64,000 nucleotides of DNA from Mitosporidium daphniae (taxonomy: Eukaryota > Microsporidia). This document shows positions 1-64,000 of this stretch, piece by piece. Where the stretch lies: NCBI RefSeq assembly GCF_000760515.2, contig NW_013546645.1, positions 1 through 64,000 on the forward strand, read 5' to 3'. Made by a program: the position numbers and the translations under genes. Every line of letters starts with the position of its first letter. The stretch's first letter is position 1. Below the pieces are notes generated by a model. It was not told the DNA's origin and searched no databases. It was given only the letters and a program-made list of their open reading frames with translations.

Positions 1-960
1 GCTGCCTATCGTCCAGCTAATGCCACCGATCATCTGACTAAGGCTGCCTATCGTCCAGCTAATGCCACCGATCGTCCAGTTAATGCCACCGATCGTCCAG
101 TTAATGCCACCGATCGTCCAGTTAATGCCACCGATCATCTGGTTAAGGCTGCCTATCGTCCAGCTAATGCCACCGATCATCTGACTAAGGCTGCCTATCG
201 TCCAGCTAATGCCACCGATCGTCCAGTTAATGCCACCGATCGTCCAGTTAATGCCACCGATCATCTGGTTAAGGCTGCCTATCGTCCAGCTAATGCCACC
301 GATCGTCCAGCTATTTCTATGCATCATCTGGCTAATGCCACAGATCGTCCGGCTAAAGATACAGATCATCTGCCTAAGGCTGCCTATCATTCGGTTAGTT
401 CTATGCATGATCTGAATAATTCTACGAATCGTCCAGCTAAAGCTACCGATCTTCCACTTAATAGTACCGATCGTCCAGTTAATATTACCGATCATCCAGT
501 TAATACTAACAATCGTCAGGTTAGTTCTATGCATCATCTGGCTAATGCCACCGCTCGTCCAGTTAACTCCGTATATCGTCCGGTTAGTTCTATGCATGAT
601 CTGGCTAATGCCACCGATCGTCCGGCTAGTTCTATGCATCATCTGGATAAGGCTGCCTATCGTCCAGCTAAGGTTACCAATCGTCTATCTAAGGCCGCAT
701 ATCGTTCAGTTAATGCTACAGATCGTCCGGATAGTTCTATACATCATTTTGCTAAAGTTACCGATCGTCCGGTTAGTTCTATGCATCATTTGGCTAAGGC
801 CACCCATCATCCTAGCAATTTTATCGATCCTTTACTATATGCTACCGATCCTTTACTATATGCTACCGATCCTTTACTAGATACTACAGATCCTTTACTA
901 TATACTACAGATCCTTTACTAGATACTACCGATCTTTTACTAGATACTGCAGACCCTTCA
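1..960 (+). repeat. 21-bp tandem repeat array
   Basis: The array consists of 21-bp units such as GATCGTCCAGTTAATGCCACC. They are nearly identical in the first 300 bp, degenerate between about 300 and 810, and reappear as a different 21-bp family (CCTTTACTATATGCTACCGAT type) at about 828-960. It lies wholly inside the open frame and probably continues past the left edge. Confidence 0.9.
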
Positions 961-45488: not shown

Positions 45489-45641
45489 CTCGCTTTAACT
45501 TTAATTGATTGAAAATATTCGCCCACTGGCTGATGGTTCTCTTTAAAATCGTTCAATTAATTTTCAGCATTCCAATTAATTTTACTTTTAAATTAATTTC
45601 CATTCTTTTCGTCCCAGAAAGCCAATCTAGCCTTTACTCAG

Positions 45642-45953: not shown

Positions 45954-46193
45954 CTCCATAGGCTTGCCAATAAAAATTCACCATTGAGGCAAATTTTGCC
46001 GTTACACTTGATTTTCTGATTAACTTGGAATTACCGGCAAATTAAAATGCTAAATTGTACAGAAAGGTTCCGTGCTCTTGCTGGGCTTCTGCCCCCACAC
46101 GCACATGCGCACAGTGGTGGATAAGATTTTCCGTCCATGCTACAAATTTACGAACACAAACTCATCTGGCCGCGCACCTAAAAGTTGTCTCTT

Positions 46194-47874
46194 TTATTGA
46201 GGATGATAATCGCAAGTTTTTTCTTTCGTCTTATAGTCAGCAATGTGGGAGATCTTAAGCTCTGGATCCTCAATGACATTAGAATACTCCAGTGTAATCT
46301 GTAACAAGACGGGATTGCATTTTTCAGACTCCATTTCTTTGGAATTAATTAGGTCATAGGCAACTGATGGATAAAGCAATATGAAACATACCTTTTTTTA
46401 ATTTATGCACAAACGACACCGCAAACGACTTGATGTCGGAAGTAAAAGAAATAGGGTCTTCTTGGTTGAATTGTTTAAAGTTTCCAATGGAAAAGCTAAA
46501 CATTCCATTCTGCTGTGTGGTAACAAAGATGTTTGTGACCACAATGTTTCCATGACTAATATTGTGCGATCTCAAGCTATTTATCGAGGCAAACAGGCGT
46601 TTAAAAGCCTCAATAACCTGGGGGCTGTTTGCAGTCTCCGGCTTAGATTCAAAAAATGAAGATAACGACTGTCCGGTCTCTGCATATTCATCTTCATACA
46701 TATATCCCAATAGGTTCATTTTGTTTTCTTGCAAATCAATCAACAGGCCCTTTGGATAGCGAAAGTCTTTGGATTCATTTTCATCAAAATAACGTATTAT
46801 CTTGAGCTCGTCACCATATTTGAACTCATAAGTAAAGGGGGGTATCTTTAATATACCTTTCTTGAATTTTTCCAACGAAAATTTGAAATTTAAATCGTTT
46901 CCAGCGTCTGGGTTGTTCAATTCCCAACGAGCCAAATTTTCCCTTTTAGAAGAAAGGGTGTTGTCTTCTTTCACGGTAATATTTACACCGTGGGATTGAA
47001 TTACAGCTGGCATCAGTACATGAGAATTCCATTCGAAGAAGTAACGAAGAATATCATTCCGTAGTTCCTGCTCCTCTTCAGTAGCATTTGAATAATTGCT
47101 TTTGAAAAACTTTTGTACTAAATCTTCGTTTTTTAGAGTTGTCTGGCCAAAAAACTGCGATATTTTGTCGTCGTCCTTGAGAAAAGACTCCAAGGTTTCT
47201 GTAAGGATCAAGCGAAACATGGATTTGGACATAATATTCCAGACACTGAGTTCGAATATTTTTATAACAAAGGGTTTGTTATTAACAAAGCCTCTAGAAA
47301 TGAAAAAGATTTTGAGAAATGATTCGATAGACTCGGTGCAATAAAAAGACCTAATCCATTTGGGTGGGCTGCTAGTTTCGTTGGACGGGATTTTTTCTGC
47401 AGTAAAAAAGCCATCCTGCCTGGGAAAGTAAAACATGGGCTTCAATGCTGAAGGAAAATACGTCCTATCTTGAGACCCATTGAAGAAAACATAAAAGTCG
47501 GTCACATTTTTCAACCTCCATGTGTAATCAGGATATTTACCTGCGAAATTACAGAATAATCCATTAGCTCTGTTGTATTCAGCTTTTTGATCTTTGGAGG
47601 AATCTGTGGGGGAATCTGTGGAGGAATTTTTGGAGGAATTTGTGGAAGATATGAAATAAGCGCTAAAGCCGATCACCGTGCATATCCCAGCTAGCTTGAA
47701 TATATAAGTATGAAGATGCTTCGATCGAGAACGTGCCGGAACGGCCAGACCATATGCAACTCTTAACGCAAGTAGCGTAGCGATGCAAATACACGCTGTA
47801 ATTGCTACAGTCAGCATGCCATCTAAACCCGTATAGTGGGTCTGCATCTTTTTTATGGAATTTTTTAGCCACAT
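46194..47874 (-). CDS. Membrane protein with pseudokinase-like C-terminus (copy A)
   Basis: No named family is recognised. Exons 47874-46392 and 46363-46194 (28-nt intron) give 550 residues. Two hydrophobic segments near residues 17-40 and 58-75 are followed by a Ser/Thr/Asn linker of SS-T-N/D-SS units and a region with many N-x-S/T sequons. The last ~150 residues resemble a protein kinase C-lobe without catalytic residues: HNISHGNIVVTNIF (HGN for HRD), FSIGNFKQF (NFK for DFG) and FTSDIKSFAVSF (cf. DIWSFG). The start ATG matches that of its inverted copy; an upstream GTG-initiated extension is not credible. Confidence 0.65.
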
Positions 47875-47879
47875 AAATG
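47275..47879 (-). repeat. Left arm of near-identical inverted repeat
   Basis: This 605-bp arm is almost identical to 48053-48693 in inverse orientation; stretches of 40-50 bp compared base by base show no mismatch. It covers the 5' third of copy A plus five bases before its ATG. The spacer between arms (47880-48052) is 173 bp. Confidence 0.92.
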
Positions 47880-48052
47880 AGTCCTGTTTTTGGAGTGAGA
47901 TTATCCGCGATGTTTTGGAGGAGGCGTTTTCGACTTTGGGGATCAAGATGGCACTGGGCGTGGCAGCTGCAGCCGCAGTTGATGGCTCCCCAGACGATGT
48001 CGGGCTTTTCAAAACCAGAGCCACAACGATTAAAAACACGAGAACGGTGACA

Positions 48053-48693
48053 CATTTATGTGGCTAAAAAATTCCATAAAAAAGATGCAGACCCACTATA
48101 CGGGTTTAGATGGCATGCTGACTGTAGCAATTACAGCGTGTATTTGCATCGCTACGCTACTTGCGTTAAGAGTTGCATATGGTCTGGCCGTTCCGGCACG
48201 TTCTCGATCGAAGCATCTTCATACTTATATATTCAAGCTAGCTGGGATATGCACGGTGATCGGCTTTAGCGCTTATTTCATATCTTCCACAAATTCCTCC
48301 ACAAATTCCCCCACAGATTCATCCACAAATTCCTCCAAAAATTCCTCCACAGATTCCCCCACAGATTCCTCCAAAGATCAAAAAGCTGAATACAACAGAG
48401 CTAATGGATTATTCTGTAATTTCGCAGGTAAATATCCTGATTACACATGGAGGTTGAAAAATGTGACCGACTTTTATGTTTTCTTCAATGGGTCTCAAGA
48501 TAGGACGTATTTTCCTTCAGCATTGAAGCCCATGTTTTACTTTCCCAGGCAGGATGGCTTTTTTACTGCAGAAAAAATCCCGTCCAACGAAACTAGCAGC
48601 CCACCCAAATGGATTAGGTCTTTTTATTGCACCGAGTCTATCGAATCATTTCTCAAAATCTTTTTCATTTCTAGAGGCTTTGTTAATAACAAA
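48053..48693 (+). repeat. Right arm of near-identical inverted repeat
   Basis: This 641-bp arm exceeds the left arm by 36 bp because the AC-AAATTCC-type minisatellite encoding S/T/N units has 12 more codons. The identity ends abruptly after the codons for GFVNNK; the downstream coding sequence is clearly diverged. Confidence 0.92.
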
Positions 48694-49332
48694 TCTTTTC
48701 CTGGGGAAACCTTTCGTGATGAATTAGATCACCACATGAAATGTGTTGACAATCGACAAAGCTTTCTTTTGATCCTTACGGAAAACTTGGACTCTTTTCT
48801 CAAGAACGACGACGAAATATCCCAGTTTTTTGACCAGAAAACTCTAAAAAACGAAGATTTAGTACAAAAGTTTTTCAAAGGCAATTATTCAAATGCTGCT
48901 GAAGAGGAGCAGAAACTACGGTATGCTGTATCTACTCATTTCAAGAAATGGGCTGATCATGCACTGGTGCCAGCTGTAATTCAATCCCATGGTGTAAATA
49001 TTACCGTGAAAGAAGACAACACCCTTTCTTTTAAAGGGGCAAAAGGTAAAATCTGGGAATTGGGAAACTATGTTGCTAAAAACGATTCAAATTTCACCTT
49101 TTCGCTTCAAGGCTTGACGAGCGGTGTATTAAAGATACCCATTTTGGGTGAAAAGCTCGAACCTTTAGATCTGCTCAAGGGAATATATATTTGGAATCAA
49201 GATAAAATGGATAACTTGGATCATATGAATATGAATATGAAGGCTGCACAGGGCGCGTTGATTGATGCAAGTAATTCCACAATTACGCTATTGGGATACA
49301 TGTATCGGAATTTAACCGCCAAAAATAGTTAG
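48058..49332 (+). CDS. Membrane protein, shorter paralog (copy B)
   Basis: 424 residues, no intron. Residues 1-211 equal copy A except for a 12-residue insertion in the Ser/Thr/Asn linker. After GFVNNK the two diverge, but homology persists in LILTENLDSFL, LKNEDLVQKFF and PAVIQSHGVNITVKEDNTLS. The frame stops shortly after LLGYMY, where copy A continues into the pseudokinase-like part, so B is a truncated form. Function is unknown; both have two membrane segments near the N-terminus and sequons in the remainder. Confidence 0.65.
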   Translation: MWLKNSIKKMQTHYTGLDGMLTVAITACICIATLLALRVAYGLAVPARSRSKHLHTYIFKLAGICTVIGFSAYFISSTNSSTNSPTDSSTNSSKNSSTDSPTDSSKDQKAEYNRANGLFCNFAGKYPDYTWRLKNVTDFYVFFNGSQDRTYFPSALKPMFYFPRQDGFFTAEKIPSNETSSPPKWIRSFYCTESIESFLKIFFISRGFVNNKSFPGETFRDELDHHMKCVDNRQSFLLILTENLDSFLKNDDEISQFFDQKTLKNEDLVQKFFKGNYSNAAEEEQKLRYAVSTHFKKWADHALVPAVIQSHGVNITVKEDNTLSFKGAKGKIWELGNYVAKNDSNFTFSLQGLTSGVLKIPILGEKLEPLDLLKGIYIWNQDKMDNLDHMNMNMKAAQGALIDASNSTITLLGYMYRNLTAKNS

Positions 49333-49376
49333 TTCGAAGTTTGTTGGTGCGCCAATCGCCATTAAGAGGGGTCTAT

Positions 49377-49396
49377 AAAATTAAAATTTAAAATAT
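49377..49396 (+). promoter_or_regulatory. A/T-only box before PRP18
   Basis: A run AAAATTAAAATTTAAAATAT ends 9 bp before the ATG. It is the same class of A/T-only element seen before Smc5, Yju2 and other genes. Confidence 0.35.
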
Positions 49397-49405
49397 CAAT
49401 TCCAC

Positions 49406-50414
49406 ATGCAAGCATTGAAAGCCGAATTAGAGGCGAAAAAGGCATCACTTGAATATACACGCTCAGAATCACGTAAATTGTACGTTGCAAGAAGAGATAT
49501 TGAAAAAGAGCGCGTGAACTCGTATCTATCTGCACATGAGGAGCGCCAATTGGTCAAAAAGAGATGCATTCCCCCACAAGAGACTGTTCCGTGTCAGCCT
49601 ATTTCTTCTGCAGAAAAAAAGGAAGCATTACCCCACCAAGCTTCTTACAGCAAAGCTGCAACGATAAAGATAAACACAATTGAAAATTCAGAGGAGAACC
49701 GATTTTCCACGCTTCTTTTCGAGCATCAAGACACACTTTCTCTCGATCTCAAGATGAACAAAGAACACGGCATGACATCACACGAGTTCCTTTTCCTATT
49801 TTTCAAGTTTGTTCATTTTAATTTCTCACATTAGAAAATTGCTACTAGAATGGGAAAAGGCCGAGATCCGGCAAGAACCAACCAACGGACAGGTGCTCCA
49901 TCCTCAACTGCCCCACGAGCATAAGCCCAGGGCATTTCCGGAAAATCAAATGGCCCTGAAGGGCGTCGAAACGAAAATGGACCAGCCTGAATCTTTGCAT
50001 CTGAAGGTGATTAGCGAATTGCAGCCTGTTGTCAGGAACAAGCAGTTTCTTTCCGAAATTTTTACCCAAACCAGCCAATATTTGATGCCGTTTTTTGTGC
50101 TTTTGCAAGAACAAAATATTCCGGACTCGGTGATTGAACACCTTATGGAGATTGTCGGCTTTTTGCAGACGAAACAATATGTCAAGGCAAACGACGCCTA
50201 TATACGCCTCTCAATAGGTAATGCGCCATGGCCTATTGGCGTAACCATGGTTTGTATACATGAGCGTTCAGCTCGGGAGCGTATTCACTCGAATCAGGTA
50301 GCACATGTGCTAAACGATGAGCGTCAACGCAAGTGGATCCAGTCCATCAAGCGGTTGATTTCCTTTTGCCAACGCGCATACCCACCTGCCCGTATTACGC
50401 AGGCTCTAGGCTAG
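49406..50414 (+). CDS. PRP18: Pre-mRNA splicing factor Prp18
   Basis: Second-step splicing factor. Exons 49406-49785 and 49835-50414 (49-nt intron) give 319 residues. An N-terminal helix (MQALKAELEAKKASLEY) matches the human Prp18 N-terminus. The C-terminal five-helix domain contains the conserved loop YVKANDAYIRLSIGNAPWPI and VTMVCIHERSARE, then VAHVLNDERQRKWIQSIKRL. The splice joins HE to KLLLEWEKAE. The conserved loop is complete, so the protein should be functional. Confidence 0.95.
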
Positions 50415-50529
50415 CTATAAATACCGCAGGGTCTCGTCTCATTTGGAAATCGGGGGGGGGTTTAATTTCCATTTCGCTAGCGTTCTGACTCCGCCCTTTG
50501 ATTTGTTTTGGTCTAGTTGTATGATTAGT

Positions 50530-51543
50530 TTATTGAAGGCTCCTTGGTTTAAGCCAGCGCGCCTGTATGAATGTGCGCTCGAGATCGAGGCCATCTCTCG
50601 CGTTCACGGTCCGCCGCGTGACGTACCTGTTTTCCAGGACTACAAATCCTGCTCCTGAAAAAAGCGCCTTCGCGTACTCTGCCAATAAATAGTAAATGGG
50701 CATGTCAAATGGGATCGGTGAAGGGTATGGTTAATGGTAAAGTTAGCCCGAATCACGGGTGATGATAGGAAACATAAAAAGTAAAGCGTGGAGGCCTACC
50801 TGCAGAAAAGAAGAAGGAAAGCGTCCCATCCTGCCGTACAAAAGTATGTTCGTCAATTTTTCTGTCCTCTTTAAAGCGGAGCTGTGCCAAATCATTAACT
50901 GCATAATCGCGGAAGAAGAGCACACTACCTGGCCGGAGGAGCTAGGATTCAATGCAGAAAGGCTTACCTCAAAGGCATTCCGGACCACTAGATTATGGCT
51001 GGCTGGAGGTACTGCTGAAAGCATAAAGACGAGCGTCGCGAGTGTAAAGCTTGGATGCATCTTGGTCGTGTCAAGTAGGGAGTAAAAATTCTTCCATGTT
51101 GGGGCTGGACTGGCATCCAAGCACAGGCCTTGCATGCCAAAATTACAGTTAATGTCTTGATTCTTGTGCATGGGAAGGCCAAGGGCCAATTGACCCTGAG
51201 AGATATCTGTGGCAAAATCAAAAGCGGCCACCCAAAGCCGATGTGCAAACCGCTCATATTCGGGTGATTCCATGATCAGCTTTACTGCCTCTGTGGATAT
51301 CTCGACACCATAGCAACGCAGCAATGGAAACTCTCTAAGTAACGGAAAAAGCAGATTCCCTACACCACACCCAATCTCAAGCAGGAAATGACCTTCCCCC
51401 TCTCCAGACAACTCTGCAAATTCAGTACCGAGCCAGTGACGATCACGGAAAAAGTGGTCCTTGTTACGACGATAAAAGAGATTCCAGCTCTTCTCACCAC
51501 ACTCAGAAAGGTATTTGGACGTCCAAAATGGCGGTATCACCAT
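50530..51543 (-). CDS. tRNA (cytidine-32) N3-methyltransferase, METTL2/6 family
   Basis: SAM-dependent enzyme related to Trm140/141 and METTL2/6/8. Exons 51543-50968, 50941-50800 and 50678-50530 (introns 26 and 121 nt) give 288 residues. The signature KSWNLFYRRNKDHFFRDRHW is followed by motif I LLEIGCGVGN, then VFMLSAVPP, and LLRPGSVLFFRDYA restored by the first splice; the tail ENRYVTRRTVNAR matches the RR-x-x-N-R ending. The second intron contains no AG between its 5' TAGG and the acceptor, so the 121-nt length is well supported. The length fits METTL6 (about 284), not the longer METTL2. Confidence 0.88.
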
Positions 51544-51745
51544 CACTTAAATGTACAAAATTTATTCAAACTTCGGACACCTCTGATAAGTGCGCATCCT
51601 TCAATTGAGCCGCGGCTATCGACCAAAAATCGGTGAGCCAAAGATCAGCATACCAAGGCACACGCTAATGATAGATGGCAAAAGGAAATTTCAATTTCGA
51701 TGCCACGACCACCGGGAGTCTGACTTGGTGACCATCAGGGTTAGG

Positions 51746-54700
51746 TCAGAATTCAGGATGCCATCGTGGGTCCACGCCAGAAATATCTTGACAGGCCTTC
51801 GATGCCTGTGAAATGAGCTCGACGATAGGTGCATAAAGTGAGACTGGCAGTGGTTGCTTGACCTTGGATTCGCTCTGGACGGTAGCTTGGGTTCCGGCTG
51901 CTGTTGATCCCCCATCCTGAATGTCTTCTTGGGAAAAGACGACCTGGCTCACGTAAGCAGAGACATGTGCAGAAATGATGTCCTTTTCTTTCTCGCAAGC
52001 AAGAACTTTGATGCGTTCTAAAGCCCCTCGTGCATGAATAGAGGGACCACGAACCCGTTGCTCCATCGTTGGCTGGCTACCAGCTAGAAGATCAAAGAGA
52101 TCGCTAATTTCTTCAGAGCGATGGGAAAGTTCATCCGCAAGGGCATGCACGGATGGCACAAAGAGCCCATCTACAAAAACACGGCCCAAGAATGTTTGCA
52201 GTGCAGGTCCCATACGGAACACAAGGGGAGCATGCAGCACACGCATACCCGGTGCTTGGGTATCATAACGCAGCGATGAAGGGTCAATTTTGATAGCACA
52301 AGCAGAGTTGGGCTGCGTCGACATTTCTTGCGAGGCATTTGGAGCCCGTTCAGTGGCTGATAAAGCCAGTTCATGTGCCGTAGCGTCAAGACGCTCAAAC
52401 AGCGCAGCGCCAATCCAGGAGAGCCGACCGTGCGCCAAAGGGCCTAACCCAATTGAGGCTAAATCGCGCTGCCGTACGCTTCCCAGGATGCTCCATCCCG
52501 TGATCAGAGCAGCCCATTGTAGTGCAAACGACTTGCGATAAAGCCAATAGTCTTGAGAATTGGCCAGCCGTGCAGCTACGAATGCTGCCAGTACTGAGGA
52601 ACACGCCATCTGTATGTCCTGTTCTTTAGCCGGCGTTTGGGGCTTCATTGGCCCTGCCGTTGCAATTTCTACTTCCGCCGGCTGAGCAGCGGCGCCGGTG
52701 GTCGTATTTAAGCATTGAGCCATGGAGAGCGGGTCTACAATGATGTCTGGAGATGCAAGAACAACCATGCAGGATCCATTTCCATTCAGAGCATCAGAGG
52801 CAATTAGTGGCAACAAAGATGAATTCCACGTGAGCAGCGGAGATGCCCGTTGGCGAACCAGACGCCCCTTTGAGGCAACTCCGCCCAGCATCCAAAGAAG
52901 CCGCGATGCTGTGGCCGCACCAAGTATGGCATTGACCCTTTCGGTGTCATTAAAAATGGTAATAGCCCGCACACTGCCATCACTAAGATATACCACAAGC
53001 CCATAATGACCATCTGTTTGGCGCAGGATGGCACCAAAGGAGTCGATTTTTGTAGATGATGCCCCAGTATCGCCTTTGCGTGGTAATACCAAACGCTGAC
53101 CAGGTAATTCGAGCTCATCATCCATTGGGAGACGTGGGAACGAAGAAAGCCAACGCGAAGTTACATGCACAGGGCTCACTACCACATTGCACCGTTTCTT
53201 TTTTGAGGGCAGGTGATTGTTTTTCTTTGCCGACATTAGGCTGTTTTGCACTTCCCCCAAAAAGATGATCATTGTCTCCGTGGCCAAAGGATGGACTGCC
53301 CGTAGCATAGACAATAGCGCTGCCATTTCGTCTCCATTAGAATCCAAAGCTTTGCTTCGAATACGTGCTGAAAGCGGATAAAAGAGAAGATTCGGGAAAA
53401 GGCGTCCAATGCGCTGCAATAAGCTTCGTAGCCTGGAGCCTAGCTCCATGGTTGAGCTAGAGCCCGGAGAATCTCGCAAGTCATCAAGCATTTCTTCCAG
53501 AAACGGTAGCCACGGAGCCAAAGGAAGCTCTGCCAAATACAGATCAAAAATGCCTGCAAGCTCTGGCGCCATTCGCAACATCTTCAAAATCATAGAAGCA
53601 AGTAACAAAGCTTGACTGTGCGTGCACCCATTGCTCAGTCCAGAGCCATAGCGGAGATCCTCAGCATCTTCATCGCAAAAAGAGCGCTCATGCGAAGATG
53701 AGTTTGTCCCGTTTGGATCAGAAGAAGAGGCAGATGCCACAGAAGATGATGCTGTTGAAGGATCATTGCGTCTTTGGTTGGCATTTTGGTGATGAGACGC
53801 AGAAGAGGAAGAGGATGTTCCAAGAATCATTGCCTGCAAGTAACAGTGAATAGCATGCATTGCAAATGTTTGTGCGTTAGGCTCCTCCGGATACGGTGTC
53901 AATGCAGTAAATGAGGTCAACGTCGACGGAGAGGTTGTCCCCAGTGAAGTGGCGGATGTGATATTCAGCGAACATGGTGGTGGTTTTGCTAGGCCAGGAG
54001 ATCTTCCAGCGGTCAATGAGGATTCATCTGCGGAGCACGTGCCAGCAGCTTCCACGCCCAAATCATGATTTTCTTCTTCTTTTTTGGCGATAAATGCACG
54101 GAAGCGGCGGCGATTATAATGACCCCAGGCAGCCCAGGCGCGTCCGTGGTTGATGTCCAGCTGTACTGCTTGCGAGTGAACCTTGTTTGCTTCTTCAATT
54201 CCGGTGAGGTTAAGAGCCTCCAAAAAACGGCCTTTAAGGGAAAAAAAGTCCGACTTTTGAGAGGCGCCAAAGTATGCCAAATTTGTAGAGTTGATAATCT
54301 CAAGCCCAGCTACAAGCAACAACGTTCCCGGAGACGCACAGCATGCCGTGGAACTGGATTTGGCTGCGCCTTGGTCATCCGCACATCCTTCGGTGGCTTG
54401 TGCCGTGCTGCTGTTGGTGTCCGTATTTGCACTTGTAGCCCCTCCACTAGCACCACCAAACGTAGCAGCAGCGTGAAGTGGTACGGCCGCTGTCAGCCAT
54501 GGTGCTGACAGCGGATCGTAAAATGCATCAAGATAGCATTGTGCTTGCTCGCTCAACTTCCAAAAAGCATCTTGAATCTCGATGTTGGGCAGCGTGTAAA
54601 TCTTATTGAGCAGCTGTACGCAAATATCTGGAAGACGATGGCGACGAGCTACAGTCGCAAAGCGATTGATCAGCCATGCGCTTTCATGATAACCGCGATA

Positions 54701-57700
54701 AATCAGGGTTCCTCCAGAAGATGCAGCAGAAGAGGCCGAAGATGGGGCCGTAGATGGGGCGTTCATATTGCCAGGACCTGCGGCTCCACCCATTATCACC
54801 ATGTTGTCTAGTTCCGTAACGGTGGCTGCAAAGAGCCCATTGATGGCCGAAAAGAGAGACTGCCTCCAAGCAGCCAGCTCAGACCATGCCCCAATGGAAT
54901 CATAATGGATGGAGGGAAGCCGTTCCCGCCAGGTGCCCAAGATTCCTCTGAGCTCTTGCACCATAGTCAATTGGGGCTGGAGCGGTGATGCATTGGAAAG
55001 GTGAAGATTGCCCGCTCCACCGCCTCCAGCACCAAGGAAAAGTCCGGCAGCTTCCTGCACTTCCACAAAAAGCTGAAAGAGAATTGATAGCGAATCATTT
55101 TGAGATGAGCCGATAAGTGGCCATGGCATGGCGGCCCATTGTGCAAGAGTCACCTGGAAACCTTCCTCGATAAGGCGGCCCAACTCAGCGACACGCCGAC
55201 CAGAGAGGACTGTTGATCCAGAGGATGCGTTAGCTCCTGGCCCATGGATCCCACCAGAAAGGCCAGCACCAGCGCTGGTACCAGTACCGCCCCCGCCGAT
55301 ATTTCCAACAACTCCCGTGATGATTTGATGTAAGTGAAGCAGAGCATCGTAAAAAAGACGCTTAGGTGTTGGGGCATCCGCAACAAGCTCTAGTGCCGCG
55401 CGCACAGCGGCTTGATCTTTAGAGGTGCTCCAGTCCAACAAGCGCCAAGATGCATCAAGTGAGAGGTCGATGTCATTGTCTACCTTTGCAAGTTCAACCA
55501 AAACGTCCCATTGTTGCAGCCGCCGCGCAGCAGCGATCCATCGCTCCTGCCATTGTTGCATTTCATCCCCGCCTTCTCCGAATGAATGGGAAGAGGCATT
55601 TTCAGACTTTTTTGCATCACAAGATGAACCTTTCCGGGCACCATAAGCATCATAATAAAAGGAAGATCCATCACCGCTAGGGCAAGCGGTACTATCACAC
55701 GGATCTTTCATGATGTTGACGATGTTTCCAACTTCGTTCTTGACAAGTGGTTCTGTGGCAAGACGTCCTGCTCGCGCAACAGCCTGCGCAGCCTCCAAAA
55801 CTACTTGTGCACCTTCAAGATATTCGGCCTGTTCCAGCGAGCTCGCAAGAATGGTCTGCCCGTGGCGTGCCTGGCATCTCCGTGCCCCGAATGCACCATC
55901 ACTCTCTCCCATTGCTTCATATAAATAGCCGAGAGCCTCATAATTTTGTGAAGCCCTACACATGGTCTCAAGAGAAAGTACAGGTGCAAACCAATTGAAG
56001 TTTTTGGCAAGGTACCGTAGCAGCATCTCACTGAGCCCAAACTGTACCATGATTTGGGGATGATGTAATGCGAGAGCTGAAATAGCCTCCAACAGCGTAC
56101 ATGCCGGTAGCGTGTGGTTTCGCGGGGACCAAGAAGTGGAAGAAGAGGAGCTAAGCAAATGATATGGCCGTGATAGATTGTATGAGAGATCAGCCCCTAT
56201 GGTTGAGAGCAATATCATGTCGGTTCCTTCGCGTTCGCGGTTTTGAGAAGCAGCTATGGCGATTTCGCCAAAACATCGTACCCAGCATACATGAGCCCAA
56301 GCTCCATCTACACGGGCTAGGGCTGAAATCGGACCTTGAAATTGGGAAAGTAAAGGTCCTCGAGCACGTTGTATGAGGGCCAAAGCTTCGTGGATCCAAT
56401 ATGAGGTCGCAATGGCCTCCCAGTTCTGAACGCCAAGAATATAACGCAGGGCTTTAAAGGGACCCTCCAGTGATGGTTGCGCAAATTCAAGAGAAAGATA
56501 AATCACCTCAATTAGCTGATCATACAGCTCAGGCTCGCCTCGACATTCTACCATCAAAGATAAAAAGTCTTTCTGTAGTTGAAAGGTTACTTCTGAATGT
56601 GCAAATGACGAGCAGGGCATCGCTTCAGGGGTAGATCGGGAAGGAAGATCCATTGATACATGGGACTTTCCATACACCAGACAAAGTAGCTGAACCATAG
56701 CCCGGCGCACTTTTCGGATACTTCCGAGCCGAATCTTGGCTAGAAGTAGGCCCAAATCACCCCAATGGTGAAGATTATGATCACCATCTTGGCCATTTGG
56801 GTGATCATCACGGCCGGCTCCAAAGTGACCTTCCATGGCCTGATGGCCCGAATCAGAGGAATTTTCGCGGAGCTTCGCGTAACAAGAGGCAGCCATAAAA
56901 AGCAAGTCCATTTTCTCTTTCAACATGAAAGTTCCCCCGTTGAGCCAGTGAAAAATTCTCACCAGAATATCTTCGATTACGGCAAGAGGATAAAGCATCG
57001 GATGCGAGGTAATCATTCCGATCACGCCAAGGAATTTTTGTCGCTCCTCGCTAGATGAGACCAAGTTAGATGCCAAAGCATCCCTTTCAATGATATCAAA
57101 AATGAGTATCATTGCTAAGCCACGAATGGTGGAGAGTATCTCTTGAGGACCGCCCATTAAAATATCCTTTTCCGTGATAATGGCGGTACAGAAAGCAACC
57201 TCAGAAGCAGAGGCCGGGGCTCCCGGCGCAAGTGCTTCGCGTGCCAGATCTGACAGCATGCTAATTAGCACCGAAATAGGAAGCAATGTTGGAGGTGCAG
57301 CTGCGATGGAGGCGGTAGATTTCGCCTGAAAGTCATTGTTATCTTCGTGAGCGTACAACACTTCACCAGCTATTGTCGGCAAGGCGGCAGTTGTACGTTT
57401 TGAAGAAACAGCGCCAAAGTTCGACCAAATAAAGAGCAAGACAGGCAGCAGTGAAGGAAGCGAAACTATGAGTGCCGGATTGAAATCAGAGGGAACAACA
57501 TCCAGTCTTTCCACAACTTGACCGTTTTTCTTATAAAATAAAAGACCAGAAAGCGACAGTGAAATACGAAGCGAGAGCACAGATGAAAGAAGAGGAGAAG
57601 ATGTCATTGCAGACGAGAATGAGTTTGCTCCCCCACTAACACCATGTTGAAGCAGCGATGTTGGGTATGAAAAAAAGAACCCAGGAAAAAGCGAAGGGAT

Positions 57701-60700
57701 ACGCTCCATAATTATCTTCACATATCTTTCTCGCTCTTCCTTGGCATTTACGCAAAATATCATTTCAAGCAAAAAGAGGGCATTAAGAATCGATCGTAAA
57801 GGCTTAGGCAATTCCGAAAACGATGTCGCAAAAGCTTGAGTAGCCATGGGAGGTTCGGCAGACGAGGATGCCTGAGCTGCGTTTGCAGGCAGTGGGATCA
57901 TGGACGCAGTTTGTGCTGGAGAGGATTGGAAAATCTCATCAACCAAATGCCATGGCAAGGAGAGTCCAGCTTCTGCAGCAGACATAGCCAGTTTTAATGC
58001 ATATGCATCATACTCCAGGCAAGGCATTGATGATACCGATGCTGCCAAAGAGGCACCACCACCATTACACACCGTTGATGAGGGGTTCACCGGTGGCGTA
58101 AAGGTAGGCTTTGCCATGAGAGAAGAAGAACACAGGGTATACCCTTGGCCAGAAAGGATGATTCGAAAAAGGGTTTCAGAGGTGCCCTCCCAAACACCAG
58201 GCCCAAGGATCGGTATCAAAGGCAAAGGTTGAGCCGCCTGGGCGACGCGAGTCCTTTTTCGCACGTGATGCTGCTTGGACGAAGATGTTGTTGATACTGG
58301 AGAAGGAGTCGTTGCAGATGAGTTGTTAATGGAAAGAGTTATAATGCAATCGATAATTAAGAGCTGGCCACTTTTCATAAGATCAGAAATAGGTGATTGT
58401 GGCTGCGAAAGTAGCGAGCTTATCACTTCCAATGCCGAGTACCACCACCAACAAGGAGCTTGCCCCATTGCAGCCGTGATCTGCAGGGGAGATATGGTTT
58501 TTATTGGCGATGGGACACCTGCTGTTGAATTTTCTATCTTTGCTGATGAAGGAATCCCCAAAAAGGGAGGAAACCCTGGAGCTTTGTATGAAAACGAGGT
58601 TGGTATCACGCGAGCTTGATTTGAGCAGGCGGTCATTGAAGCAAGAGCGCTCCAAACAATTCCGTGTTGTTGAGAAAGTGACGCCATAACATGCTCGGAT
58701 CCAGATATTGAGCCAAGGCCTTTTGTCATAGGTGGGCCATAGCCTGCAAGTACATGCAGAATGGCGGAAAGTACGCGTTCGAGCGACATTGATAACGCTA
58801 TTGTCAGGATCTCTATCACTGCAAATAGACGTCGAGAATCAACAATAGTGCTGTTTGAGCCACCAAAATCTAGCAATACACGGAAAGAAGACTCGAGTTC
58901 TCCATTTGCACCTACTTCATTTGGATGAGATGCATAAAGAAGCACCTGAGCCGCAGCGAGATTGTACCGATCCTCGTCACCGTCGGTAGGAAGTTCCTTG
59001 GCAACAGTAGTAATGGTAGTGTGGCACCACTCGTTTAAAGACTCCGAATTGAGACGAACCGACATTTTCGCGATGGCAAAGAGAAGGGCAGAAGAGCAGA
59101 ACCCCCGCTTTTCGATGATTTTTACCAATTTTTCTTGTGAAACCTTGTCAAGTTCTTTCAAATCATTGATCCAAGAAACAAGAAAGGCCTCCCGAGCAGC
59201 CCAATTAGGAGGGTCATCACAGGGATCAACGGCATCGATAAGGCTGCAAATAAAGTTAAGATCACACTGTATACGCTGCTCAAGAACCTGTGGAAATGAA
59301 TCCACCAATGCAGCTAGTAGAGGTAGCAGCAGAGGTGCATTTTCGTTGCAATGAAGCACACCATCGCTAGAGGACACCTTCGCTATATCAGATGCCTTAG
59401 GAGCTGTGGCGACCAGCAGGGCGGTACCTGCTTGCCAAAGAACATCTTCGAGTGAAGTGGCAAAGGCATCTCCAAAACGAAGCAGTATCCGCTCTCCTCC
59501 CTTGCGGGGCTTAACCTTATGTCTTTGGATCATCCGCACAATGAGGGTTGAGACACTCTCTGCAAGCTGCGGGCTCAGAAGCTTGCATACTGAAGAGGAT
59601 CCGGAAGCGGAGGGATTCTTGCAAGACAATGGATCTTTGTCTTGTTGAAGATGCCCAGAAAGAGTACCTCTTTGTAAAGAAAGAAGCATGGAGGCAACGA
59701 CTTCGGAAAAATTTGCATTGGCCCCTGGGCTGTCCCTCCAGCTTTGATTGTTCTCTCCTAGATCGAGACGACTGGCCAGAAGCTCCCAAGTTCCTGGAGA
59801 AAGCACAATGTCCCGTGCCTCACTGTGCATCGCCATGAGCTCACAAAAAAGCCCAACAATACGATCATCCTTCAGTCGTTCTCCCCCAACAATCACTTCA
59901 ATGGTAACCGAAAGGTGTTTGCAAAGATAGCGCAGTACGGGCCTCCTGAAAGGCGAGGCTCTTGTCCTGCGAACCATTTCTTCAAGTGAGCACAGAGCGA
60001 CCAGCGTCTCTTCTAGAAATACTGATGAGGTTGGTGGAAGCAGATGGAAGACATCCAAAATGGCTACGATGATGCCGATTTCTGGCGCCAAGATTTCTGG
60101 AGGCCCAGAAGGAGACGCCGCCTTGGCAGCTTCAGCCCATTGCCTGAGATGCTCTAGCAACTTGCGACCAATTTCGGCTTTAAAATAAGAAGTGAGAAGC
60201 TCAAGTAAGCGGCCGAGACCCTCTAGCCCAGGTATGGTTAACCGCTTATAATCGGAGAGGTTCATCAACACGGGACGAAGACCGTGCTGCATTAGCTCTT
60301 TCGGTAGCTTGTGCTGCATGGCTATGACGAGAGCAAGACCTGTTTTACTTGCGCCCACTATATCAGGATTTCGAGCATAAAGAGACTTGAAAAAGATGGA
60401 CACAATTCGATTCCTGAGTGCCAAATGGTTTCCCGGTGCTGAAAAAGTAGGCGAGCCCATGGCTGCCGTAAGGAGCCGGATGCAAGCTATGCGAAGCCGG
60501 GCCCCGAACGGGCCATTGCTTCCCTTGGCCACTGCTGATGTGACAGAAGGTGAGGAGGCAATCTGTGACCCTGAAGGAGTGGTGGCGCTCGGTGCAGGCG
60601 ATGAAGAGGTTGTGTTTGAGGCTGCATGTGCTGGACCTGCACTTGAAGGTGTAGCAAGCGATGCTGAGACCGAATTTACTCCCATTGAAATTGAAGATTG

Positions 60701-63700
60701 ATCTTCAATGGTATCAGCCATGCCCACACAATCTGTAACCAAAGCAAGAAAAGATGGGGAAAATTCCAAAAAAGACGGATCTTTTTTCATGACAAAAGCT
60801 ATCGCTTCAATTATTCCGATCTGATGAGAAATAGGAAGCAAAGAGATGTCTCTTCCTTCTGGACCGCCAAGCCACTCTTGCTCAATGATTGTAGATCGGA
60901 TGGGCTCAAGTAGCTTACAAAGAGCCCGACCTGCAGCAGATGATACCACAGGAACGGGTGGGGTAGTTATTCCGGCACTTGGAATAGAAGGCCGTGCATC
61001 TTGTGTGGGGACCGATGAATTGAGTGTTTGCGATGATGTAATCGCAAGCGCTGGCTGCGCAGCGGGAGCTGAAGATACCGGTATATGGGGTAAAGCACCA
61101 AGAGCCCCAGACTTTGCAGCAATAACATCCCCATCCTGCTTTTCAAATTTCTTAGCCAGCTGTTCAAGCATCCCTTGTGCCATGGCCCTATTTTTTTCCA
61201 GAGGAGATGCAAGCTCCTGCGTCAAAACCCCAAGCAACCCTAAACAAGGAGTGTCGTTCCTTTCCTCAATAAGAACAAGCAAAAGGGAATCAAGGGCACG
61301 CTCGGGCGCTATCTGTAGCGAGCAAATGCCAACCAAATGCTGACTAGCCAACTCAAGGGACTTGAAAAGGGCTTCGGCACAAAAAGTGAGAGTGGTATCT
61401 GCAACTGAAAACCTTTTCTTTTTGGAGAATATTTCGCGTAACAGGTCAGATCCAGAGAGACGGGCATAGATGGACTTTTCTCGGAAAAGCCCGCATATTC
61501 GAAATAGGATGTCCTCGACGCCATGCTGGAACTCCTGTTGAGACAATTGCTTAAAGGCAGGATGATTTTGATAACATGTCCCGCGCAAAACTCGAAGCAA
61601 AAGAGAACACGCACAAATTCTCAGCTGTGGATTTTCAGAACATAAATACTCGTCAAAAAAAATATCAATAATATCGCTACTGCGCTCGCTATCCCTCATA
61701 GCATCGGCAAGCCCCAGTTCGAGGTTTTCTCTGATTTGATGCAAGAACGAGGCCGAAGGGAGATGATGATGATGATGATGATGCTTGTCGTCCATCTTTT
61801 GGAAATCATCGAAAGTTTTATCGAGAATTACGGGGTCATTAACGCAAAAGAAATGCCCGTCCACGGTACTAGTGTGGTCCGACTCGTCGTGATTAAACCA
61901 AGAAAAGTAGGCTAGATATCTGATCTGGATGCCGATCAGCTCTTTAGTATGCCTTAAGCGCTTTTCCTCCAAATAGGAACGAGTGATACGAGGAAGATAA
62001 TGAGCAGGTGATGAGGGAGATGCGCTATCTCGCTTCTTGAACGACTGCTGTGATTCTGGCAGCCACAAGAGCTCATTCCACTGTGAAATAAGCCGATGCA
62101 AAAAAGCCTGCTCGTGCTGAGCCTCTAAGGGCACCTGCAATGATGAAGAAAGATGCGTCTTGAAATTTAGTTGCCGTATGGGTCTCTTATTACGTCCTGC
62201 AAGCTTTCCAAGGATCCTAAGCGCAGTATGAGCAAATTGGGAAGGATATGGGAGAGGTCTGCAATGAGCCCAAAGAGCCTCAAGCAACTCTGGCATGACA
62301 CTGGACAAAATGGGATCGAGAAAATCCTGCGTCAAATTATCAATACAAAGCTCCAGAGTCCGCAAGCCTTGAGACAGCAATTCAGGCGTCATAAACGTTG
62401 AAGACGATGAGGAAGATGAGGAGGAGGATGACGAGCCACTCGAGATGTTAGACGTAGGTGCTGACGCTTGTGAGGCGGCAGATGTTGCTGATAATGGTAG
62501 AGTAAAGCCGCCTTGATTCTGTGACGCCGTACCAGAGGCGGATGGCATCATAATCATCATTGACATTGAAGGTGAGCTTATAACTTTTAACGAATACACA
62601 AGTGGCTTCATCAAAAGTGAAAGATATGGAAGCAGCACAGAAAGACGCACAGGAATGGTAAGCGCCAGCTCGACAACCAAATCCTTCAGCAAATCCGTGG
62701 GTTGTGGGTATGAAGGCGTTAGCGGTGTGTTTGATTCATGGCTACCTCTGGAAAATGTCTGAAGAATCTCAATGGAGTGAAGCAGGGCATTGAGTGTCTC
62801 AAGAATTGTTGGCAGAATAGGAAGAATTTCACGATAAAGAATTTCAAAGCGGCCACCCCCAATGGCTCGAAAAAGAGTTCTAAGAAGCAAAAGGGCATGA
62901 AAAGGCTCCTGTGACACTTTGGAAGAACCGCAACGTAAACACGAAAGGATCAGTTCAGGAAGAAAAGCTGCCCAAACACCCTCGATTTCTTCTGGATAAG
63001 CCCCCAAAGCCATCAACATTAATTTCATTATACGCTGCAGACGGGCTGCACTATCAATATTCATCACTTGGGATAGCTCATTGCCGCCGAAAAGATTCTT
63101 GGAAAGCCATCGAAGCAAATGAAGAAGTGTGATTTTGGCAACCTCCGGCCCTCCAGGTCCAACCAAAAAAACTTGAAGAAGTGCGGAGAGTGCAGGCACA
63201 GATGTAATTGCATTGTATATGTTTGGGCAGTTGGAGGAAATGATGTCCGAAAAAACAGAAACCTCCAGCAAAATGAAAATCTGCGCAATCTGCTCCACCA
63301 TGTCCTTTTCCTCTTGTGCGAGCTGGCTTTGCAAAAGAGACGCATCATATGCCAATCCTTTGGCAAAAAAATTGATCGTCTCACACGAAAGCGAAGAGGA
63401 AAGACCAGAAGAAGGCTCTTGGATGCATTTTTGATCGGACGCACAAAGACGCACCAATGTGGCTACAAGATCCCCAAAAAGACGGACAAACCAAATCGAC
63501 TCCTCATGAAGGATACCTCGAACCGAAAAGATTGCGGAAGACAAGGGGGCAGGTGATGGTTGAAGCGAGCGAAAGGCGAAAAAGATCACTTTAAGGCCTG
63601 TAACTAGTGCACGAAACAGAATTCTAAAATTTTCTATGCCAGTTTCTTCAGAACCGAAAACAGGCGTTTCCGAAAGCATATGAATGGCCCTACAGTACGA

Positions 63701-64000
63701 GTAAAATATTCTCCAATAGGCCTCTTTCCTATTGGCCATTGTAAGTTGCGGGTGGGAAGCAAGAGGAAGCCCGACCACAAAGTGTTCCGCAATCGTACTT
63801 AGCAGCCTAGCCGCCACGGCCCTGACGCCAAAAGAAAGACCGGAGCGGTTATGCTCGGACTCTAGCAAGCTTACAAATGCCGGTATCAAAGTCCAATTGA
63901 AAAGAGAAACCGGGATTTCCGTTCTAAAATGGACTATAAAATCAGCAAATGTGGTAATAATAATCGGTCGCAACGTACGCGCCGCTGTTGATTGCAGAGA
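51746..64000 (-). CDS. TRA1: Tra1 / TRRAP, 5' end beyond window
   Basis: Activator-binding scaffold of SAGA and NuA4. The frame is open without interruption from the right edge to the stop at 51746-51748, 4084 codons with no intron, and longer than yeast Tra1 (3744) already. The HEAT region includes low-complexity inserts (His7, Ser tracts). FAT-domain sequence lies roughly in the last third. The C-terminal PI3K-like domain lacks HRD and DFG motifs, as in all Tra1 proteins. The FATC end is LISQASKACQDISGVDPRWH plus PEF. It is the largest gene here; Gcn5, its SAGA partner, lies 16 kb away. Confidence 0.93.
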   Translation of the reverse strand, partial: SLQSTAARTLRPIIITTFADFIVHFRTEIPVSLFNWTLIPAFVSLLESEHNRSGLSFGVRAVAARLLSTIAEHFVVGLPLASHPQLTMANRKEAYWRIFYSYCRAIHMLSETPVFGSEETGIENFRILFRALVTGLKVIFFAFRSLQPSPAPLSSAIFSVRGILHEESIWFVRLFGDLVATLVRLCASDQKCIQEPSSGLSSSLSCETINFFAKGLAYDASLLQSQLAQEEKDMVEQIAQIFILLEVSVFSDIISSNCPNIYNAITSVPALSALLQVFLVGPGGPEVAKITLLHLLRWLSKNLFGGNELSQVMNIDSAARLQRIMKLMLMALGAYPEEIEGVWAAFLPELILSCLRCGSSKVSQEPFHALLLLRTLFRAIGGGRFEILYREILPILPTILETLNALLHSIEILQTFSRGSHESNTPLTPSYPQPTDLLKDLVVELALTIPVRLSVLLPYLSLLMKPLVYSLKVISSPSMSMMIMMPSASGTASQNQGGFTLPLSATSAASQASAPTSNISSGSSSSSSSSSSSSTFMTPELLSQGLRTLELCIDNLTQDFLDPILSSVMPELLEALWAHCRPLPYPSQFAHTALRILGKLAGRNKRPIRQLNFKTHLSSSLQVPLEAQHEQAFLHRLISQWNELLWLPESQQSFKKRDSASPSSPAHYLPRITRSYLEEKRLRHTKELIGIQIRYLAYFSWFNHDESDHTSTVDGHFFCVNDPVILDKTFDDFQKMDDKHHHHHHHLPSASFLHQIRENLELGLADAMRDSERSSDIIDIFFDEYLCSENPQLRICACSLLLRVLRGTCYQNHPAFKQLSQQEFQHGVEDILFRICGLFREKSIYARLSGSDLLREIFSKKKRFSVADTTLTFCAEALFKSLELASQHLVGICSLQIAPERALDSLLLVLIEERNDTPCLGLLGVLTQELASPLEKNRAMAQGMLEQLAKKFEKQDGDVIAAKSGALGALPHIPVSSAPAAQPALAITSSQTLNSSVPTQDARPSIPSAGITTPPVPVVSSAAGRALCKLLEPIRSTIIEQEWLGGPEGRDISLLPISHQIGIIEAIAFVMKKDPSFLEFSPSFLALVTDCVGMADTIEDQSSISMGVNSVSASLATPSSAGPAHAASNTTSSSPAPSATTPSGSQIASSPSVTSAVAKGSNGPFGARLRIACIRLLTAAMGSPTFSAPGNHLALRNRIVSIFFKSLYARNPDIVGASKTGLALVIAMQHKLPKELMQHGLRPVLMNLSDYKRLTIPGLEGLGRLLELLTSYFKAEIGRKLLEHLRQWAEAAKAASPSGPPEILAPEIGIIVAILDVFHLLPPTSSVFLEETLVALCSLEEMVRRTRASPFRRPVLRYLCKHLSVTIEVIVGGERLKDDRIVGLFCELMAMHSEARDIVLSPGTWELLASRLDLGENNQSWRDSPGANANFSEVVASMLLSLQRGTLSGHLQQDKDPLSCKNPSASGSSSVCKLLSPQLAESVSTLIVRMIQRHKVKPRKGGERILLRFGDAFATSLEDVLWQAGTALLVATAPKASDIAKVSSSDGVLHCNENAPLLLPLLAALVDSFPQVLEQRIQCDLNFICSLIDAVDPCDDPPNWAAREAFLVSWINDLKELDKVSQEKLVKIIEKRGFCSSALLFAIAKMSVRLNSESLNEWCHTTITTVAKELPTDGDEDRYNLAAAQVLLYASHPNEVGANGELESSFRVLLDFGGSNSTIVDSRRLFAVIEILTIALSMSLERVLSAILHVLAGYGPPMTKGLGSISGSEHVMASLSQQHGIVWSALASMTACSNQARVIPTSFSYKAPGFPPFLGIPSSAKIENSTAGVPSPIKTISPLQITAAMGQAPCWWWYSALEVISSLLSQPQSPISDLMKSGQLLIIDCIITLSINNSSATTPSPVSTTSSSKQHHVRKRTRVAQAAQPLPLIPILGPGVWEGTSETLFRIILSGQGYTLCSSSLMAKPTFTPPVNPSSTVCNGGGASLAASVSSMPCLEYDAYALKLAMSAAEAGLSLPWHLVDEIFQSSPAQTASMIPLPANAAQASSSAEPPMATQAFATSFSELPKPLRSILNALFLLEMIFCVNAKEERERYVKIIMERIPSLFPGFFFSYPTSLLQHGVSGGANSFSSAMTSSPLLSSVLSLRISLSLSGLLFYKKNGQVVERLDVVPSDFNPALIVSLPSLLPVLLFIWSNFGAVSSKRTTAALPTIAGEVLYAHEDNNDFQAKSTASIAAAPPTLLPISVLISMLSDLAREALAPGAPASASEVAFCTAIITEKDILMGGPQEILSTIRGLAMILIFDIIERDALASNLVSSSEERQKFLGVIGMITSHPMLYPLAVIEDILVRIFHWLNGGTFMLKEKMDLLFMAASCYAKLRENSSDSGHQAMEGHFGAGRDDHPNGQDGDHNLHHWGDLGLLLAKIRLGSIRKVRRAMVQLLCLVYGKSHVSMDLPSRSTPEAMPCSSFAHSEVTFQLQKDFLSLMVECRGEPELYDQLIEVIYLSLEFAQPSLEGPFKALRYILGVQNWEAIATSYWIHEALALIQRARGPLLSQFQGPISALARVDGAWAHVCWVRCFGEIAIAASQNREREGTDMILLSTIGADLSYNLSRPYHLLSSSSSTSWSPRNHTLPACTLLEAISALALHHPQIMVQFGLSEMLLRYLAKNFNWFAPVLSLETMCRASQNYEALGYLYEAMGESDGAFGARRCQARHGQTILASSLEQAEYLEGAQVVLEAAQAVARAGRLATEPLVKNEVGNIVNIMKDPCDSTACPSGDGSSFYYDAYGARKGSSCDAKKSENASSHSFGEGGDEMQQWQERWIAAARRLQQWDVLVELAKVDNDIDLSLDASWRLLDWSTSKDQAAVRAALELVADAPTPKRLFYDALLHLHQIITGVVGNIGGGGTGTSAGAGLSGGIHGPGANASSGSTVLSGRRVAELGRLIEEGFQVTLAQWAAMPWPLIGSSQNDSLSILFQLFVEVQEAAGLFLGAGGGGAGNLHLSNASPLQPQLTMVQELRGILGTWRERLPSIHYDSIGAWSELAAWRQSLFSAINGLFAATVTELDNMVIMGGAAGPGNMNAPSTAPSSASSAASSGGTLIYRGYHESAWLINRFATVARRHRLPDICVQLLNKIYTLPNIEIQDAFWKLSEQAQCYLDAFYDPLSAPWLTAAVPLHAAATFGGASGGATSANTDTNSSTAQATEGCADDQGAAKSSSTACCASPGTLLLVAGLEIINSTNLAYFGASQKSDFFSLKGRFLEALNLTGIEEANKVHSQAVQLDINHGRAWAAWGHYNRRRFRAFIAKKEEENHDLGVEAAGTCSADESSLTAGRSPGLAKPPPCSLNITSATSLGTTSPSTLTSFTALTPYPEEPNAQTFAMHAIHCYLQAMILGTSSSSSASHHQNANQRRNDPSTASSSVASASSSDPNGTNSSSHERSFCDEDAEDLRYGSGLSNGCTHSQALLLASMILKMLRMAPELAGIFDLYLAELPLAPWLPFLEEMLDDLRDSPGSSSTMELGSRLRSLLQRIGRLFPNLLFYPLSARIRSKALDSNGDEMAALLSMLRAVHPLATETMIIFLGEVQNSLMSAKKNNHLPSKKKRCNVVVSPVHVTSRWLSSFPRLPMDDELELPGQRLVLPRKGDTGASSTKIDSFGAILRQTDGHYGLVVYLSDGSVRAITIFNDTERVNAILGAATASRLLWMLGGVASKGRLVRQRASPLLTWNSSLLPLIASDALNGNGSCMVVLASPDIIVDPLSMAQCLNTTTGAAAQPAEVEIATAGPMKPQTPAKEQDIQMACSSVLAAFVAARLANSQDYWLYRKSFALQWAALITGWSILGSVRQRDLASIGLGPLAHGRLSWIGAALFERLDATAHELALSATERAPNASQEMSTQPNSACAIKIDPSSLRYDTQAPGMRVLHAPLVFRMGPALQTFLGRVFVDGLFVPSVHALADELSHRSEEISDLFDLLAGSQPTMEQRVRGPSIHARGALERIKVLACEKEKDIISAHVSAYVSQVVFSQEDIQDGGSTAAGTQATVQSESKVKQPLPVSLYAPIVELISQASKACQDISGVDPRWHPEF
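61756..61778 (+). repeat. Trinucleotide repeat (GAT)n encoding poly-His in TRA1
   Basis: On the plus strand (GAT)n-like repeats read as CAT/CAC His codons on the coding minus strand, giving seven His in a row inside the HEAT region. Such tracts vary in length between strains. Confidence 0.8.
62398..62434 (+). repeat. Serine-codon repeat in TRA1
   Basis: A GA(T/A/G)-rich trinucleotide tract encodes a run of about 12 Ser residues on the minus strand, in a low-complexity insert of the HEAT region. Confidence 0.75.

What the first reader, a model, noticed from the sequence alone, without database searches (positions are those of the whole stretch)
47275..48693. Head-to-head inverted gene pair with near-identical 5' thirds and diverged 3' parts
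Arms of 605 and 641 bp are practically identical around a 173-bp spacer, while the remainder of the two proteins is clearly diverged and one lacks the whole C-terminal module. An abrupt identity boundary after the GFVNNK codons suggests gene conversion or a fold-back (palindrome-forming) event renewing only the membrane-anchor region. The only arm difference noticed is a 36-bp change in minisatellite number.
Basis: seen in the sequence. Interest (0 to 1): 0.75.

Follow-up and report, generated by a model that had tools for sequence, protein, structure and literature searches.

The report
Head-to-head gene pair, probably misassembled
Two look-alike genes of a water-flea parasite appear fused head to head in this contig, but other contigs of the same draft genome point to two separate copies about 53,000 bases apart in the same direction, so the inverted arrangement is most likely an assembly error around a duplicated stretch.

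Summary
The sequence observation is exact: arms 47275-47879 and 48053-48693 are reverse complements without a substitution, differing by 36 bp of minisatellite, around a 173-bp spacer; past GFVNNK the genes diverge sharply. The window is contig C56 of Mitosporidium daphniae. The arrangement is probably not a real palindrome. The spacer is N-terminal coding sequence. In contig C118 the right gene (B) has a complete 5' end behind an M1 aminopeptidase; from the junction on, C118 and C56 agree over 17,109 bp with one mismatch, inside the junction, and end on the same base. The left ends of C56 and C118 look like two halves of one repeat gene, which would put A and B in the same orientation about 53 kb apart. 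Contig C55 ends 64 bp inside the same block, coming from a second aminopeptidase. This fits a collapsed two-copy block of about 3.5 kb plus one fold-back link with 3-bp (6 of 7) microhomology. What remains is an aminopeptidase and membrane-protein pair whose middle is identical between copies while both ends are diverged (recent conversion or duplication, partly inferred). A real ~53-kb inversion variant is not excluded. The published 2025 long-read assembly would decide.

The parts
46197..48055 (-). Left gene A (DI09_17p270, P0002): annotated protein matches 46387-47847 and 46197-46343; the open frame runs on through the spacer; kinase-like C-terminal part
47275..47879 (-). Left arm, 605 bp, identical to the right arm except for 36 bp less of minisatellite
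47880..48052 (-). 'Spacer', 173 bp: N-terminal coding stretch (hydrophobic VTVLVFLIVVALVL by eye) of gene A here, and of gene B in C118 and C80
48049..48058 (.). Inverted junction: the left-hand parent matches through 48055, the right-hand parent from 48053 (CAT shared; GAC[A/T]CAT, 6 of 7)
48053..48693 (+). Right arm, 641 bp
47590..47646 (-). 12-bp minisatellite, about 4.8 copies, in the left arm
48286..48375 (+). 12-bp minisatellite, about 7.3 copies, in the right arm
48058..49332 (+). Right gene B, 424 aa here; in C118 the same gene starts 72 codons further upstream (ATG at C118:8165 against 8381)
48053..64000 (+). Sequence repeated in C118 and, from 48319, in C80 (continues to C56:65157); holds the Tra1/TRRAP gene
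1..958 (+). 21-bp coding array with a C-terminal flank; the same array with an N-terminal flank is at the left end of C118

Best explanation
The head-to-head palindrome is an assembly error in the short-read draft of Mitosporidium daphniae. The genome holds two copies of a block of about 3.5 kb (most of an M1 aminopeptidase plus the 5' third of a membrane-protein gene), in the same orientation, about 53 kb apart. One copy lies before gene B and Tra1/TRRAP, the other before gene A and an SMC gene. The assembler could not separate the copies. One fold-back connection inside the block, at a 3-bp (6 of 7) microhomology between sites 165 bases apart on opposite strands, linked the A exit of the collapsed block to the B exit. 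Shown: the duplicated contig sequence, the intact B, the array at the two left ends, the C55 end, the junction. Inferred: that the unseen 2.6 kb of the second block copy is identical, that the two array halves are one gene, which aminopeptidase goes with which gene, and that the fold-back arose in vitro or in the assembler. The biological remainder is a diverged paralog pair whose middle block was made identical by recent gene conversion or duplication.
For: (1) C56:48049-65157 equals C118:8372-25480 over 17,109 bp with one mismatch, which is inside the junction; C56:48319-65157 equals C80:431-17269 with two mismatches; C56 and C118 end on the same base. (2) In C118 gene B has a complete 5' end behind an aminopeptidase; relative to it C56 costs A its start (first 35 coding bases) and B its first 72 codons. 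(3) In the own-genome search the 21-bp array of C118 was found again only at the left end of C56; both sides read in one frame, one with an N-terminal and one with a C-terminal flank, which would put A and B in direct orientation. (4) C55 starts with a second aminopeptidase N-terminal half (44.7% identical over 197 aligned positions, the identical last part included), which becomes identical for exactly 64 bp, and then the contig ends, as at a repeat entry; the catalytic half was found once at high identity. (5) The spacer was found at 3 places in the 147-contig set, none of them a reciprocal inversion junction. (6) The A body and SMC flank are single copy apart from the A/B likeness. (7) Of 3 other contig ends tested, 0 had a kilobase duplicate and 1 had a 103-bp match, so the 17-kb triplication is special to this locus.
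Against: No reads were available. If the assembler was of the de Bruijn kind, some read should carry the junction. The assembler and library method of the 2014 draft were not seen (paper not held). About 1 Mb of the 5.64-Mb draft, probably the contigs under about 17 kb, is not in the held set, so a reciprocal junction or a different upstream of A could hide there; the search tool also calls its counts lower bounds. Linkage through the repeat gene is an inference: the longest exact match between the two array ends is 32 bp. The pairing of the C118 aminopeptidase with B crosses the same block and was made by the same assembler, so it is not independent proof. C80 carries two single-base differences and the short minisatellite joined to the B body, which this reading does not explain well and which could mean further real variants. 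The 3 control ends do not show that this assembly commonly makes such errors.
Confidence: 0.75

Rival explanations
1. A real inversion variant: in part of the sequenced parasite population the ~53-kb segment between A and B is inverted, with breakpoints in the 5' ends of the two paralogs, formed by microhomology-mediated template switching. C56 would hold one of its two junctions and C118 the standard order.
For: Both orientations of the spacer relative to B are in the assembly; the junction has microhomology; the left ends of C56 and C118 look like halves of one gene, as the standard order would need.
Against: The reciprocal junction would carry the spacer and is not among its 3 places; four short patterns for it were absent from the 4 contigs C56, C118, C80 and C144. 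Homologous recombination between direct repeats does not give inversions (established knowledge). The two breakpoints would have to fall 165 bp apart in paralogous positions by chance. Both genes would lose their starts.
Confidence: 0.15
2. The contig is correct and the pair is a true head-to-head palindrome kept similar by conversion between its arms; C118 and C80 would be the misassembled contigs.
For: The contig as read; arms without substitutions.
Against: C118 gives B a complete start and a sensible upstream region, while C56 removes the start of both genes. The single mismatch between C56 and C118 in 17 kb is inside the junction. It leaves the aminopeptidase half at the end of C55 without a partner.
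Confidence: 0.06
3. The 17-kb Tra1 region is really present two or three times in the genome, once behind an inverted A.
For: Three contigs carry it.
Against: One or two mismatches in 17 kb and a shared last base for two contigs point to one assembly path rather than to separate loci.
Confidence: 0.04

Closest known systems
Artificial palindromes (inverted chimeras) from whole-genome amplification and their effect on assemblies (PMC6218980, passages seen)
   Same: Inverted arms around a short loop that can assemble into false inverted duplications.
   Different: Whether amplification was used for this isolate is unknown; here two paralogs stand on the two sides, which needs a collapsed repeat as well.
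Collapsed two-copy repeat in short-read assemblies (established knowledge)
   Same: Two entries (C118, C55), two exits (A, B), a contig ending 64 bp inside the block.
   Different: An extra inverted link joins the two exits, and the flank behind one exit is printed three times.
Gene conversion tracts between paralogs (established knowledge)
   Same: Identical tract with abrupt edges inside genes and diverged flanks.
   Different: The full tract is not seen twice, so its length (about 3.5 kb) is inferred.
Invertible N-terminus or promoter switches such as shufflons (recalled)
   Same: A segment that would change which gene it heads.
   Different: The junction removes both gene starts; no recombinase or recombination sites were searched for; not supported.

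Membership tests
True chromosomal palindrome with arm-to-arm conversion | Both arms and both flanks have one place each, in this order, in the genome | tested here: not met
   the right flank also lies behind a different left flank in C118; 17,109 bp shared
True chromosomal palindrome with arm-to-arm conversion | Arms near-identical relative to the diverged remainder | tested here: met
True chromosomal palindrome with arm-to-arm conversion | Single molecules cross both arms | not testable with these tools
   no reads and no long-read assembly held
Inversion polymorphism | Both reciprocal junctions exist | tested here: inconclusive
   spacer at 3 places in the 147-contig set, none reciprocal; four patterns absent from 4 contigs; about 1 Mb of the draft not held
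Collapsed two-copy repeat | Two distinct entries and two distinct exits around one assembled block | tested here: met
   C118 and C55 entries, A and B exits
Collapsed two-copy repeat | Doubled read depth over the block | not testable with these tools
   no reads
Protein kinase superfamily (gene A C-terminal part) | Pfam kinase match above the curated cut-off | tested here: not met
   PK_Tyr_Ser-Thr E 0.11, 12.2 bits against a cut-off of 23.1
Protein kinase superfamily (gene A C-terminal part) | Catalytic HRD and DFG motifs | tested here: not met
   SHGNIVVTNI and SIGNF stand in their places, judged by eye (sequence; motif rules recalled)

The most novel reading that the evidence does not exclude
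A real, segregating ~53-kb inversion (or in vivo fold-back) in Mitosporidium daphniae whose breakpoints lie in the 5' ends of two paralogous membrane-protein genes, so that the N-terminal anchor segment is moved from one gene to the other, on top of ongoing conversion of an aminopeptidase and membrane-protein block.
Probability: 0.13. Interest if true: 0.55.

Novelty: not a real feature. Interest (0 to 1): 0.18.

Why it matters
It warns that inverted gene pairs in this draft genome, and gene models drawn from them (DI09_17p270 on C56, DI09_39p10 on C80), should not be read as biology before long reads are checked. What stays of interest is modest: a two-gene unit in an early-branching microsporidian whose middle looks identical between copies while both outer parts have diverged, the membrane-protein part with dN slightly above dS.

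Tried and rejected
Structure prediction of gene A on 4 rows gave mean pLDDT 32.1 and pTM 0.20; it was not used and no fold search was run. Two protein searches, with B and with A, returned the same three proteins at E up to 1: two named M. daphniae and one without a name, from source 'lgn'. That one, P0003, 387 aa on a 2,620-bp contig, joins the front of B to the tail of A. I considered it as evidence of real recombination and set it aside: A and B share a 40-base identical stretch at the switch (read from the alignment), which an assembly with short k could join (that this source is a k=31 assembly is recalled). The third search, with the aminopeptidase, listed 120 of 7,986 matches; one is named M. 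daphniae (P0004, partial) and I saw no second M. daphniae copy among those listed. PDB sequence search with A: best E 0.75. Pfam at E up to 10 gave only sub-cutoff hits for A and B. Paper searches: Mitosporidium with 'Ray assembler' (my guess at the assembler), fold-back library artefacts and whole genome amplification with this species each returned 0 papers. The passages of PMC12534020 and the listing were seen and not used. An invertible switch was considered and not pursued, because the junction removes both starts; no recombinase search was made.

Full report
What the window is. The protein search names the left gene DI09_17p270 of Mitosporidium daphniae, on a contig of 65,157 bp. The own-genome search places the window at contig C56, 65,157 bp, in a set of 147 contigs and 4.66 Mb. 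The published draft size is 5.64 Mb (table passage of PMC5701793), so about 1 Mb is not held. The contig lengths that I saw fall with the contig number (C55 69,022; C56 65,157; C80 38,735; C118 25,480; C144 17,928), so the missing part is probably the contigs under about 17 kb.

The observation. Arms of 605 bp (47275-47879) and 641 bp (48053-48693) with a 173-bp spacer are confirmed. Within the aligned arms there is no substitution; the 36-bp difference equals three units of the 12-bp minisatellite. After GFVNNK the likeness falls: 19 of 40 aligned bases in columns 851-900, then 68-96% per 50 columns. By a simple Nei-Gojobori count the diverged part of A and B has dS 0.36 and dN 0.43 over 201 codons; the 5' part has 1 synonymous difference over 200 codons, which comes from where the minisatellite gap was placed.

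The spacer is coding. In C118 and C80 the same bases lie in the opposite orientation relative to gene B and read straight into it: in C118 MHVSSSIVRRAVCVTVLVFLIVVALVLKSP...SFMWLKNS, 72 codons before MWLKNS. In C56 the left gene keeps this stretch except for the first 35 coding bases, and the right gene starts only at MWLKNS.

The rest of the assembly speaks against the palindrome. C56:48049-65157 and C118:8372-25480 agree over 17,109 bp with one mismatch, at C56:48052, inside the junction; C56 and C118 end on the same base; C80 shares 16,839 bp with two mismatches and runs on. So the same Tra1/TRRAP region (Pfam Tra1_ring, Tra1_central, FAT) stands behind two different left flanks. Of 3 other contig ends tested as a control, 0 had a kilobase duplicate and 1 had a 103-bp match in another contig; the duplication is therefore special to this locus and not shown to be a habit of the assembly. 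C118:1-8175 matched elsewhere only at the C56 array, at C55:1-105 and over 129 bp of C121 at 75%. Window 42000-47260 is single copy apart from the A/B likeness.

Linkage. The 21-bp array at the left end of C118 was found again only at the start of C56. In one reading frame the C118 side carries an N-terminal protein half running into a 7-aa repeat (ATDRPVN type), and the C56 side carries the same repeat running into a C-terminal half. The longest exact match between the two ends is 32 bp, so this is an inferred join across an array, not an overlap. Taken together the order would be: A - SMC gene - rest of C56 - repeat gene - phosphodiesterase - aminopeptidase - B - Tra1, with A and B in the same orientation. 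The distance between the block copies is 47.3 kb of C56 plus 5.5 kb of C118, about 53 kb, give or take the unknown array length.

The second block entry. C55 begins with a second M1 aminopeptidase N-terminal half: 44.7% identical to that of C118 over 197 aligned positions (the identical last part included), then identical for exactly 64 bp until the contig ends. The catalytic half was found once at high identity; the only other match, on C121, is 27% identical. This is what a contig entering a collapsed repeat looks like; 64 would be k-1 for k = 65 (inferred; the assembler is not known to me). The block would run C118:5508-9016, 3,509 bp. Only its A-side part (window 47275 to the junction) and the first 64 bp on the C55 side are seen in a second copy; about 2.6 kb between them are inferred. 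Pairing: the C118 aminopeptidase with B, as assembled, and by exclusion the C55 aminopeptidase with A; the other pairing would close the C56-C118 segment into a circle. Since C118 itself crosses the block, its pairing is not independent proof.

The junction. The left-hand parent (reverse complement of the C118 5' end) matches C56 through 48055 and the right-hand parent from 48053: CAT shared, with GAC before it and one mismatch between, 6 of 7 (the script printed 48052 for the second number through an off-by-one, and one search lists 48052 as the mismatch). The two parental sites are 165 bases apart on opposite strands. Fold-backs of this kind are known from amplified DNA, where palindromic chimeras reach assemblies (PMC6218980, passages seen). 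Whether the 2014 library was amplified I could not find: the paper is not held and a text search found nothing. A reciprocal inversion junction was not found among the three places of the spacer nor by four short patterns in the four contigs C56, C118, C80 and C144.

A result that fits badly. C80 starts with the short minisatellite, as in the left arm of C56, but goes on into the B body, and has two single-base differences (C80:7 and C80:759) not seen in C56 or C118. It may be a chimeric path through the collapsed block or a further real variant.

The genes. A and B share N-terminal hydrophobic stretches; A alone has a C-terminal part with weak likeness to kinases (Pfam PK_Tyr_Ser-Thr E 0.11, below the cut-off; PDB entry of VRK3 at E 1.7). 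SHGNIVVTNI and SIGNF stand where HRD and DFG would be (judged by eye, motif rules recalled), so it would be a pseudokinase at most. Two further distant relatives lie on C144 and C135 (28-30% identity). Two searches of 5.8 billion proteins returned only two M. daphniae proteins and one unnamed chimera of the same two genes. The structure model was of no use.

Verdict. The sequence feature is as described; the head-to-head arrangement is most likely a false join in a short-read draft, made possible by a two-copy block that is probably real. The 2025 long-read assembly (PMC12449221; passages and the species section seen) can settle it in one alignment.

Noticed in passing
window 1-958; C118 1-154 (L009): A coding 21-bp (7-aa) repeat array stands at the left ends of two contigs, with an N-terminal flank on one and a C-terminal flank on the other; the C-terminal half ends in a KRQREREKEREREKER-type tail.
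   Followed up: yes
C55:1-4000 (L045) and C118:4977-7767 (L009): Two M1 aminopeptidases with diverged N-terminal halves and an abruptly identical continuation; introns predicted by eye are only 24-34 bp long, one at the same place in both.
   Followed up: partly
window 46354-49332: Mosaic divergence of the A and B bodies with dN 0.43 and dS 0.36.
   Followed up: partly
C80:1-487 and C80:759 (L012): C80 joins the short minisatellite to the B body and has two single-base differences (C80:7 and C80:759, the latter Ser to Leu); another variant or a chimeric path.
   Followed up: no
C144:4349-5260 (L035) and C135:2571-3080 (L037): Distant paralogs (28-30% identity) of gene A; by eye their kinase-like motifs are degenerate too.
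   Followed up: partly
window about 1400-2200, minus strand: Open frames with HRDLKPSN and VDFGLAQ: by eye a conventional protein kinase gene.
   Followed up: no
C80:38630-38732 and C116:26136-26238 (L049): 103-bp identical match between the end of C80 and a stretch of C116.
   Followed up: no
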